Source: Candidatus Njordarchaeota archaeon
Lineage (GTDB): Archaea > Asgardarchaeota > Njordarchaeia > Njordarchaeales > Njordarchaeaceae
Direction: 5' to 3'
Length of the DNA stretch: 32,398 bases
Assembly (NCBI GenBank): GCA_029856055.1
Contig: JAHQWF010000025.1
Coordinates: 1-32,398 of the forward strand
Shown here piece after piece: positions 4,463-6,136 of the stretch (positions are counted from its first letter, which is position 1; every line of letters begins with the position of its first letter). The notes under the pieces are model-generated. The model ran no database searches. It had not been told where the DNA came from and saw nothing but the letters and a program-made list of their open reading frames with translations. The translations under genes were made by a program, and so were the position numbers.

Positions 4463-5983
4463 CTACGTACCTCTAATATCCCTTAACGCTGAAGGTATCT
4501 CATCAATAACATCTGTAGCTAATAGCTCATAGCTTTTTTTCCTGAAAGCTAGATCTCCAGCATAACCAGATACGAAAGCTCCAGCACAAGAAGCTAGGAA
4601 TAAGTCATTGCATTGAGCCATGAATGCAGCGGTTATGCCGGATAAGACATCCCCGGTTCCACCAACGGTCATTCCTGGATTACCAGTAGTGTTAAATTTA
4701 ATAGTTTTCCCATCGGATATGACATCAATATGCCCCTTTAGAATAATTGTGATGCCGTGGTTCTCAGCCATTTTCCTAGTGATCTCTCCTCTGTCCTTGA
4801 GTTCTAGGGGGGGTTTCTCACCAAATAGTATATTAAATTCACCAGCATGAGGCGTAACAACTATTTTTCCTGAAGGAATGCCATGCTTGGCTATAGCTTT
4901 TAATCCATCAGCATCAATAAGGAGAGGAATACCCTTACTAGCAATAAATCTGGCTAGATCAGCTGCTGCTTCCAGAGTTTCCTCGGCCAGCCCTATTCCT
5001 GGCCCCAATACTACAGTGTCGAAATTACTAATTATTGGTTTTAATAGATCTATGTTCTCCAAACCTAGTGAATCGCCAGGCAATGGTTTAACTATTAAAT
5101 TAGGGGAAAACGATCTGATAACATTAGAAATGAGTTCGGGTGCAGCTACAATTACTAAATCAGCCCCAGTTCTAAGAGCCGCCATAGCGGCTAAAGCTGG
5201 TGCGCCAGAGTAATCCTTGCTCCCCCCTATTATTAGTATCCTGCCGAAGTCTCCCTTATGCGACCACTCAGTTCTTTTCTTTAAGCAGTTAATAACATCG
5301 CCTGGACCGACTAATAAATCCGCTTCTGGAGGTATCCCGATACTGCGTATGATTACTTTGCCCACTTCCTCTTTATCAAAACCTTTCTTAGCTTCATGAA
5401 AAGTAATTGTATAATCTGCATTCACCGTCTCTCCTGTTTTTCTCCCCTCAAAAACATTGAAGCCGCTAGGTACATCAATAGAAACTATTTTGAATCCGAC
5501 CTGGTTTTTTAATTTATTTATCTTTCTTATGGCTTCTAATGCTAATCCTCGCGCAGAACCTTTTATACCAACTCCGAGTAAAGCGTCTACTACTACATCT
5601 ACTTTTTCTAGTACTTCTTCTAGTTTATGGATTTTTGATGAGTCATCTATCTCAATGATTTTAATGCTAAATATCATTCTCCTAAGTATCTCATAGTTTT
5701 TTCTGGCTATTTCTGATCTAATTAGTGATGGCTTACCCATTAGGACCACAGTGACATCGTAATTCATTGATGCCAGGTGTCTAGCAGCCACGAAGCCATC
5801 TCCGCCATTATTGCCAGTACCGCATATAACAGCAATTCTTCTCTTATCTCTGAACTTGCTAGCTACGAAATCCGCAACATTTTTTCCAGCGTTCTCCATT
5901 AATAAGAGAGTATCCACGCCTAGAAATTCCGAGTTTTTATCTAATCTATAAACATCGCTTGGTGACAAGTATTCCGGCATCAT
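4463..5983 (-). CDS. nnr: Bifunctional NAD(P)HX epimerase / ADP-dependent NAD(P)HX dehydratase
   Basis: N-terminal YjeF_N: 'LLMENAGKNVADFV', 'CGTGNNGGDGFVAARHL'. C-terminal carbohydrate-kinase-like: 'GDFGRILIIGGSKDYSGAPALAAMAALRTGADLV', 'VLGPGIG', 'DADGLKAI', 'TPHAGEF', 'TTGNPGMTVGGTGDVLSG'. Confidence 0.93.
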   Translation of the reverse strand: MMPEYLSPSDVYRLDKNSEFLGVDTLLLMENAGKNVADFVASKFRDKRRIAVICGTGNNGGDGFVAARHLASMNYDVTVVLMGKPSLIRSEIARKNYEILRRMIFSIKIIEIDDSSKIHKLEEVLEKVDVVVDALLGVGIKGSARGLALEAIRKINKLKNQVGFKIVSIDVPSGFNVFEGRKTGETVNADYTITFHEAKKGFDKEEVGKVIIRSIGIPPEADLLVGPGDVINCLKKRTEWSHKGDFGRILIIGGSKDYSGAPALAAMAALRTGADLVIVAAPELISNVIRSFSPNLIVKPLPGDSLGLENIDLLKPIISNFDTVVLGPGIGLAEETLEAAADLARFIASKGIPLLIDADGLKAIAKHGIPSGKIVVTPHAGEFNILFGEKPPLELKDRGEITRKMAENHGITIILKGHIDVISDGKTIKFNTTGNPGMTVGGTGDVLSGITAAFMAQCNDLFLASCAGAFVSGYAGDLAFRKKSYELLATDVIDEIPSALRDIRGT

Positions 5984-6038: not shown

Positions 6039-6050
6039 ACATATTTAATC
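6039..6050 (+). promoter_or_regulatory. TATA-like element for the C/D-box sRNA
   Basis: 'acatatttaatc' about 40 nt upstream of the C box, placing a plausible start ~6070. Confidence 0.35.
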
Positions 6051-6083: not shown

Positions 6084-6136
6084 ATGATGAAGCGAACAGA
6101 CTGCGACGTAAAGGATGAGCGTCCCAGCTCTTCTGA
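6084..6136 (+). ncRNA. C/D-box sRNA (2'-O-methylation guide), dual guide
   Basis: C box ATGATGA (6084-6090), degenerate D' around 6101-6106, C'-like GGATGA (6113-6118), D box CTGA (6133-6136). Both guide tracts have 8-nt complementarity to the 23S PTC region (CUGUUCGC of the A loop; GAGCUGGG). Confidence 0.65.

What the first reader, a model, noticed from the sequence alone, without database searches (positions are those of the whole stretch)
6084..6136. Unannotated C/D-box sRNA whose two guides both point at the 23S rRNA peptidyl-transferase region
Seen: C box ATGATGA, C'-like GGATGA and D box CTGA enclose two guide tracts. The tract before D (gcgtCCCAGCTCtt) is complementary to GAGCUGGG. 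The tract after C (aGCGAACAGa) is complementary to CUGUUCGC. From memory, both are highly conserved 23S segments about 25 nt apart: the A loop around E. coli U2552/G2553 and GAGCUGGG around 2576-2583. Double-guide archaeal sRNAs often target neighbouring sites. Applying the N+5 rule puts the D target near G2578 (E. coli numbering). The D' target falls within U2552-U2554, depending on which degenerate D' box is used. A TATA-like element lies ~40 nt upstream.
Basis: partly seen in the sequence, partly recalled or inferred. Interest (0 to 1): 0.75.

Follow-up and report, generated by a model that had tools for sequence, protein, structure and literature searches.

The report
RNA guide for ribosome A-loop methylation
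A 53-base stretch between two genes of an Asgard archaeon (Njordarchaeales) almost certainly encodes a small guide RNA that directs methylation of a universally important ribosomal RNA nucleotide (U2552), apparently in a lineage that has lost the protein enzyme most of its relatives use for that site.

Summary
Window 6084-6136 is a double-guide archaeal C/D box sRNA in an Asgard archaeon (Njordarchaeales), between NAD(P)H-hydrate dehydratase/epimerase and a conserved P-loop protein. The organism's own 23S rRNA holds both predicted targets, 25 nt apart. None of 3000 simulated windows gave such a site. The sRNA is conserved at the same place in two relatives (in one the assembly breaks inside it) and elsewhere in at least seven other Asgard genomes. 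Relatives carry a canonical CTGA at the same 12-nt spacing, so D' is GCGA (6103-6106) and the N+5 target is U2552. Guide and target co-vary: family f16 has U2551 and a matching A in the guide. The D guide points at G2578 here, but its register wanders in relatives (A2577, C2579, U2580) or moves to G2509. RlmE, the protein that makes Um2552, is found in 209 of 222 other Asgard genomes but in only 1 of 10 Njordarchaeales. The guide may therefore be the remaining route to Um2552 here. It is a new member of a known kind (P. abyssi Um2669, yeast snR52), with an interesting enzyme-to-guide twist. No RNA or methylation data exist.

The parts
6084..6136 (+). C/D box sRNA core (C box to D box)
   Evidence: sequence; chance scan; homologs
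6084..6090 (+). C box ATGATGA
   Evidence: matches RTGATGA; invariant in all aligned homologs
6091..6102 (+). D' guide AGCGAACAGACT, 12 nt; 8 contiguous WC pairs with own 23S CTGTTCGC, N+5 = U2552 (E. coli numbering)
   Evidence: CGAACAG invariant in the six-sequence alignment; covaries with target in G023
6103..6106 (+). D' box GCGA (degenerate)
   Evidence: same position is GCGA in G002, G003, G004 and CTGA in G006, G009
6113..6118 (+). C' box GGATGA
   Evidence: GATGA retained in all homologs
6119..6132 (+). D guide GCGTCCCAGCTCTT; 8 contiguous WC pairs with own 23S GAGCTGGG, N+5 = G2578
   Evidence: same 23S segment in G016, G023, G031, G002 but different register
6133..6136 (+). D box CTGA
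   Evidence: invariant
6041..6050 (+). TATA-like AT-rich element CATATTTAAT (tentative promoter)
   Evidence: sequence only
4463..5983 (-). flanking gene: bifunctional NAD(P)H-hydrate epimerase/dehydratase
   Evidence: TIGR00196, TIGR00197
6215..7570 (+). flanking gene: conserved P-loop protein resembling cyclic 2,3-diphosphoglycerate synthetase (name from memory; no family model passed its cut-off)

Best explanation
The window carries a gene for a double-guide archaeal C/D box sRNA. The RNA would be bound by L7Ae, Nop5 and fibrillarin. Its D' guide (6091-6102) pairs with the 23S A-loop and places U2552 five nucleotides upstream of the D' box for 2'-O-methylation (Um2552, next to G2553, which anchors the A-site tRNA CCA end). 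Its D guide (6119-6132) pairs 25 nt further on with GAGCUGGG and would direct methylation of G2578. In most Njordarchaeales no RlmE-type enzyme for Um2552 is found, so the sRNA is probably the remaining route to Um2552. Shown: boxes, complementarity to the own 23S, conservation, guide-target covariation, presence of fibrillarin and Nop5 genes, absence of strong RlmE hits. Inferred: transcription, RNP assembly, methylation, and replacement of RlmE.
For: Boxes and both complementary 8-mers are present; 0 of 3000 Markov windows give the same. In G003 (76% protein identity in the neighbour gene) a homolog lies at the same intergenic place. In G004 (94%) contig C36 ends inside the sRNA and contig C146 starts just downstream; 37 of 38 positions are identical while flanks are about 75% identical or less. 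Further homologs: G002, G006, G009, G016 (39-45 bits) and G023, G031, G038 (24-26 bits), against a background of at most 16.4 bits. All nine sRNAs mapped have a 12-nt C-to-D' guide with N+5 at U2552. Covariation: G023's own 23S has U2551 and its guide has A there (10 contiguous pairs, against an interrupted duplex on the window's 23S); G006's 23S has U2550, paired by guide A3. Fibrillarin and Nop5 genes lie side by side on G000 contig C35. Strong FtsJ/RlmE hits: 209 of 222 other Asgard genomes but 1 of 10 Njordarchaeales, Fisher p about 1e-9.
Against: No transcript or methylation data exist. The window's D' duplex is only 8 contiguous pairs with a mismatch at guide position 3, and its D' box is degenerate. 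The D target is not conserved, and the D guide has a second 8-bp match in the own 23S. The terminal stem is weak here, and folding energy is no better than shuffles. G016 and f16 carry both the sRNA and RlmE, so the guide and the enzyme are not mutually exclusive. The genomes are incomplete MAGs (own 78%), and the Fisher test ignores shared ancestry. L7Ae was not searched for.
Confidence: 0.9

Rival explanations
1. Only the D' half is a methylation guide. The D guide mainly holds the neighbouring 23S segment (about 2574-2585), so the sRNA works as a folding chaperone for helices 90-93 as well as a Um2552 guide.
For: The D duplex stays on one segment in window, G002, G016, G023, G031 and tentatively G007, while the N+5 nucleotide slides A2577/G2578/C2579/U2580.
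Against: G006 and G009 moved the D guide to G2509, and G003 has no clear 23S target, so the segment is not always held. A2577 and C2579 correspond to eukaryotic methylation sites (yeast Am2946, Cm2948; PMC11542601), which fits a methylation role.
Confidence: 0.25
2. A k-turn in the leader of the downstream mRNA binds L7Ae for translational control, and the 23S complementarity is incidental.
For: It lies upstream of and on the same strand as the downstream gene; in G006 it lies just upstream of leucyl-tRNA synthetase. L7Ae-mediated regulation of mRNAs is proposed in archaea (PMC5539422, title and abstract).
Against: The downstream gene differs between lineages, while the guide sequence, not only the k-turn, is conserved and covaries with 23S.
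Confidence: 0.05
3. Chance arrangement of boxes in an AT-rich intergenic region.
For: Short degenerate motifs; the D 8-mer alone is expected 0.32 times in 23S.
Against: 0 of 3000 simulated windows; syntenic and non-syntenic conservation.
Confidence: 0.01

Closest known systems
Pyrococcus abyssi C/D sRNA sR25 (predicted guide for U2669 = E. coli U2552)
   Same: Archaeal C/D sRNA aimed at the same A-loop nucleotide (PMC2584109; PMC11542601 lists Um2669)
   Different: Sequence not available here, so homology untested; no P. abyssi entry is listed beside yeast Am2946 (= A2577)
Yeast snR52 (Um2921 = U2552)
   Same: C/D guide for the same nucleotide
   Different: Yeast also has the protein enzyme Spb1, whose main site is the adjacent G2922 (PMC2584109); the window's genome has no strong RlmE-family hit
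RlmE/FtsJ/RrmJ
   Same: Makes Um2552
   Different: Stand-alone protein, not RNA-guided; not found in 9 of 10 Njordarchaeales genomes
Rfam sR17 (RF01144)
   Same: Similar layout with a GCGAAC-type D' guide; weak alignment, 11.8 bits, E 1.9
   Different: Far below the gathering score of 36; not assignable

Membership tests
Archaeal C/D box sRNA | C (RUGAUGA) and D (CUGA) boxes near the ends, with internal D' and C' | tested here: met
   ATGATGA, GCGA (degenerate D'), GGATGA, CTGA
Archaeal C/D box sRNA | Guides of about 10-15 nt next to D and D', complementary to rRNA, target at N+5 | tested here: met
   12 and 14 nt; 8 contiguous WC pairs each; U2552 and G2578
Archaeal C/D box sRNA | Conservation or covariation with the target in relatives | tested here: met
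Archaeal C/D box sRNA | Genome encodes fibrillarin and Nop5 | tested here: met
   contig C35
Archaeal C/D box sRNA | Genome encodes L7Ae | not tested
Archaeal C/D box sRNA | Terminal stem next to C and D | tested here: inconclusive
   weak in window; GUGG/CCAC visible in G003 and GCG/CGC in G016
Archaeal C/D box sRNA | Expression and guided 2'-O-methylation | not testable with these tools
   needs RNA from an enrichment or in vitro RNP
Any described Rfam family | Score above gathering threshold | tested here: not met
   none in the window; best C/D hit 12.9 bits
Guide for Um2552 (function class of P. abyssi sR25 and yeast snR52) | N+5 nucleotide is U2552 | tested here: met
   all nine sRNAs mapped

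The most novel reading that the evidence does not exclude
Njordarchaeales dispensed with the RlmE protein and rely on this C/D sRNA for Um2552, while Baldrarchaeum-like and f16 relatives still carry both, an intermediate redundant state. This would be a traceable enzyme-to-RNA-guide replacement at one universal rRNA site within Asgard archaea, with a second guide that wanders over 2577-2580.
Probability: 0.45. Interest if true: 0.6.

Novelty: new member of a known kind. Interest (0 to 1): 0.5.

Why it matters
U2552 sits beside G2553, the base that anchors the A-site tRNA, and its methylation is made by different systems across life (RlmE-type enzyme, RNA guide, SPOUT enzyme; PMC12123411). The held papers that turned up in the searches describe no Asgard C/D sRNA. 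A conserved Asgard guide for U2552, present both with and without RlmE, gives a test case for how protein and RNA-guided modification replace each other near the origin of eukaryotes. Eukaryotes show a related split: yeast Spb1 with snR52. Some Asgard D guides also aim at A2577, matching yeast Am2946 and human Am4523.

Tried and rejected
Rfam scan of the window: nothing above gathering; permissive scan only weak C/D and unrelated hits. A first pattern search used a wrong spacer length and found nothing, even in the own genome; discarded. Search for A-loop guides in the D position across Asgard: 3 hits against 1 in the reversed-pattern control, judged chance. RNA folding: no better than shuffles. 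G003 D guide: no good 23S target; 16S could not be tested because no 16S lies in the own 23 kb 23S contig. Contamination as a source of the own 23S was considered and rejected: G004 carries an identical stretch at 2490-2589.

Full report
What is there. The 53-base stretch 6084-6136 (+ strand) reads ATGATGA-AGCGAACAGACT-GCGA-CGTAAA-GGATGA-GCGTCCCAGCTCTT-CTGA. It lies in an intergenic gap between a - strand bifunctional NAD(P)H-hydrate epimerase/dehydratase and a + strand P-loop protein conserved across Asgard genomes. The nearest named hits to that neighbour are an Asgard MAG (94% identity) and Candidatus Njordarchaeota B77_G9 (76%), and the window's genome G000 groups with them, so the organism is an Asgard archaeon of the Njordarchaeales (order name inferred from these titles; the genome itself is unnamed).

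Target in the own 23S. G000 contig C55 carries one full archaeal 23S gene. It contains GGGCTGTTCGCCC (the A-loop) and, 25 nt on, GTGAGCTGGGTT. G004, the nearest relative, has an identical sequence over 2490-2589, so the 23S belongs to this lineage and is not a contaminant.

Chance. In the window the strict C/C'/D scan gives exactly this one site. In 3000 first-order Markov windows there were 33 box sets, 10 with at least one guide complementary to the own 23S, and none with both.

Conservation. In G003 the same gap holds ATGATGATGCGAACAGCCAGCGAAAAAGATGAGCGGAAAAGTAGCACTGA. In G004 contig C36 ends within the sRNA (37 of 38 positions identical) and contig C146 begins just downstream of it. Elsewhere the gene has moved: in G006 it lies between aIF5A and leucyl-tRNA synthetase (names from reading the translations). 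A sequence model of six members found them at 39-49 bits, G004 (truncated) at 29 bits, three genomes of family f16 at 24-26 bits, and nothing else above 16.4 bits in 232 Asgard genomes. A further, tentative member in G007 scored only 12.7 bits but has textbook boxes: ATGATGA-CCCGAGCAGGCA-CTGA-GTGG-TGATGA-CAACTCAGCACT-CTGA.

Which nucleotide. In G006 and G009 the element after the 12-nt first guide is a canonical CTGA; in the window and its genus mates it is GCGA. That fixes the D' box, and N+5 is U2552 in all nine sRNAs mapped. E. coli numbers are by gapless offset from G2576.

Covariation. The f16 guide has A where the others have G at position 4. On the window's 23S this is a mismatch, but G023's own 23S has U2551 instead of C2551, giving ten contiguous pairs. 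In G006 the A-loop stem pair 2550-2558 is U-A instead of G-C, and guide A3 pairs with U2550. These are few events, but they are what a real guide predicts.

The second guide. In the window it fits GAGCUGGG with N+5 at G2578. G016, G023 and G031 address A2577, G002 U2580 and G007 (tentative) C2579; G006 and G009 address G2509; G003 has no good 23S match. For G002, G003, G007, G009 and G031 no own 23S was available and the nearest relative's was used. A2577 corresponds to yeast Am2946 and human Am4523, by its distance of 25 nt from Um2921/Um4498 in the table of PMC11542601. So the D target is lineage-specific, and a holding or chaperone role cannot be excluded.

Protein partners and the enzyme alternative. 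G000 encodes fibrillarin and Nop5 side by side. A strong RlmE/FtsJ hit is present in 210 of 232 Asgard genomes; the Njordarchaeales have it in 1 of 10 (G008), other Asgard genomes in 209 of 222 (Fisher p about 1e-9, ignoring shared ancestry). Fibrillarin and Nop5 were each found in 9 of the same 10 genomes, so incompleteness alone does not explain the gap. G005 is doubtful as a member (12% contamination, divergent 23S and neighbour gene); leaving it out changes little. G016 and f16 have both RlmE and the sRNA. Redundancy followed by loss is therefore a plausible order, but it is an inference.

Known context. Um2552 is made by RlmE-type enzymes, by RNA guides or by a SPOUT enzyme (PMC12123411). 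A C/D guide for U2552 is predicted in P. abyssi (PMC2584109) and in five of the archaeal species compared in PMC4644070. This locus is therefore a new member of a known kind. What is new is its presence and evolution in Asgard archaea, for which the held literature found by my searches shows no described C/D sRNA.

Limits.

Noticed in passing
L001 (own 23S), L204 (G004), L120 (G006): At E. coli position 2503 the 23S of these three Njordarchaeales genomes has C, where nine other Asgard-bin 23S stretches printed have A; 2500 also differs (C for T). G004 and G006 also appear to have C at 2059. A2503 and A2059 are nearly universal (from memory).
   Followed up: partly
table, many genomes of families f5, f19, f27: A-loop reads CTGTACGCC (U2555 to A) in many Asgard genomes that carry RlmE and no detectable guide of this type.
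   Followed up: no
G000 contig C55 (L124, L125): No 16S rRNA in the 23 kb around the 23S gene, suggesting unlinked rRNA genes; three tRNA hits there are 98-124 nt long, suggesting introns.
   Followed up: no
G004 contigs C36 (end) and C146 (start): The assembly of the nearest relative breaks inside the sRNA, which hides its D guide.
   Followed up: yes
G119, G144: Some Asgard MAGs carry two divergent types of 23S A-loop region, suggesting mixed bins.
   Followed up: no
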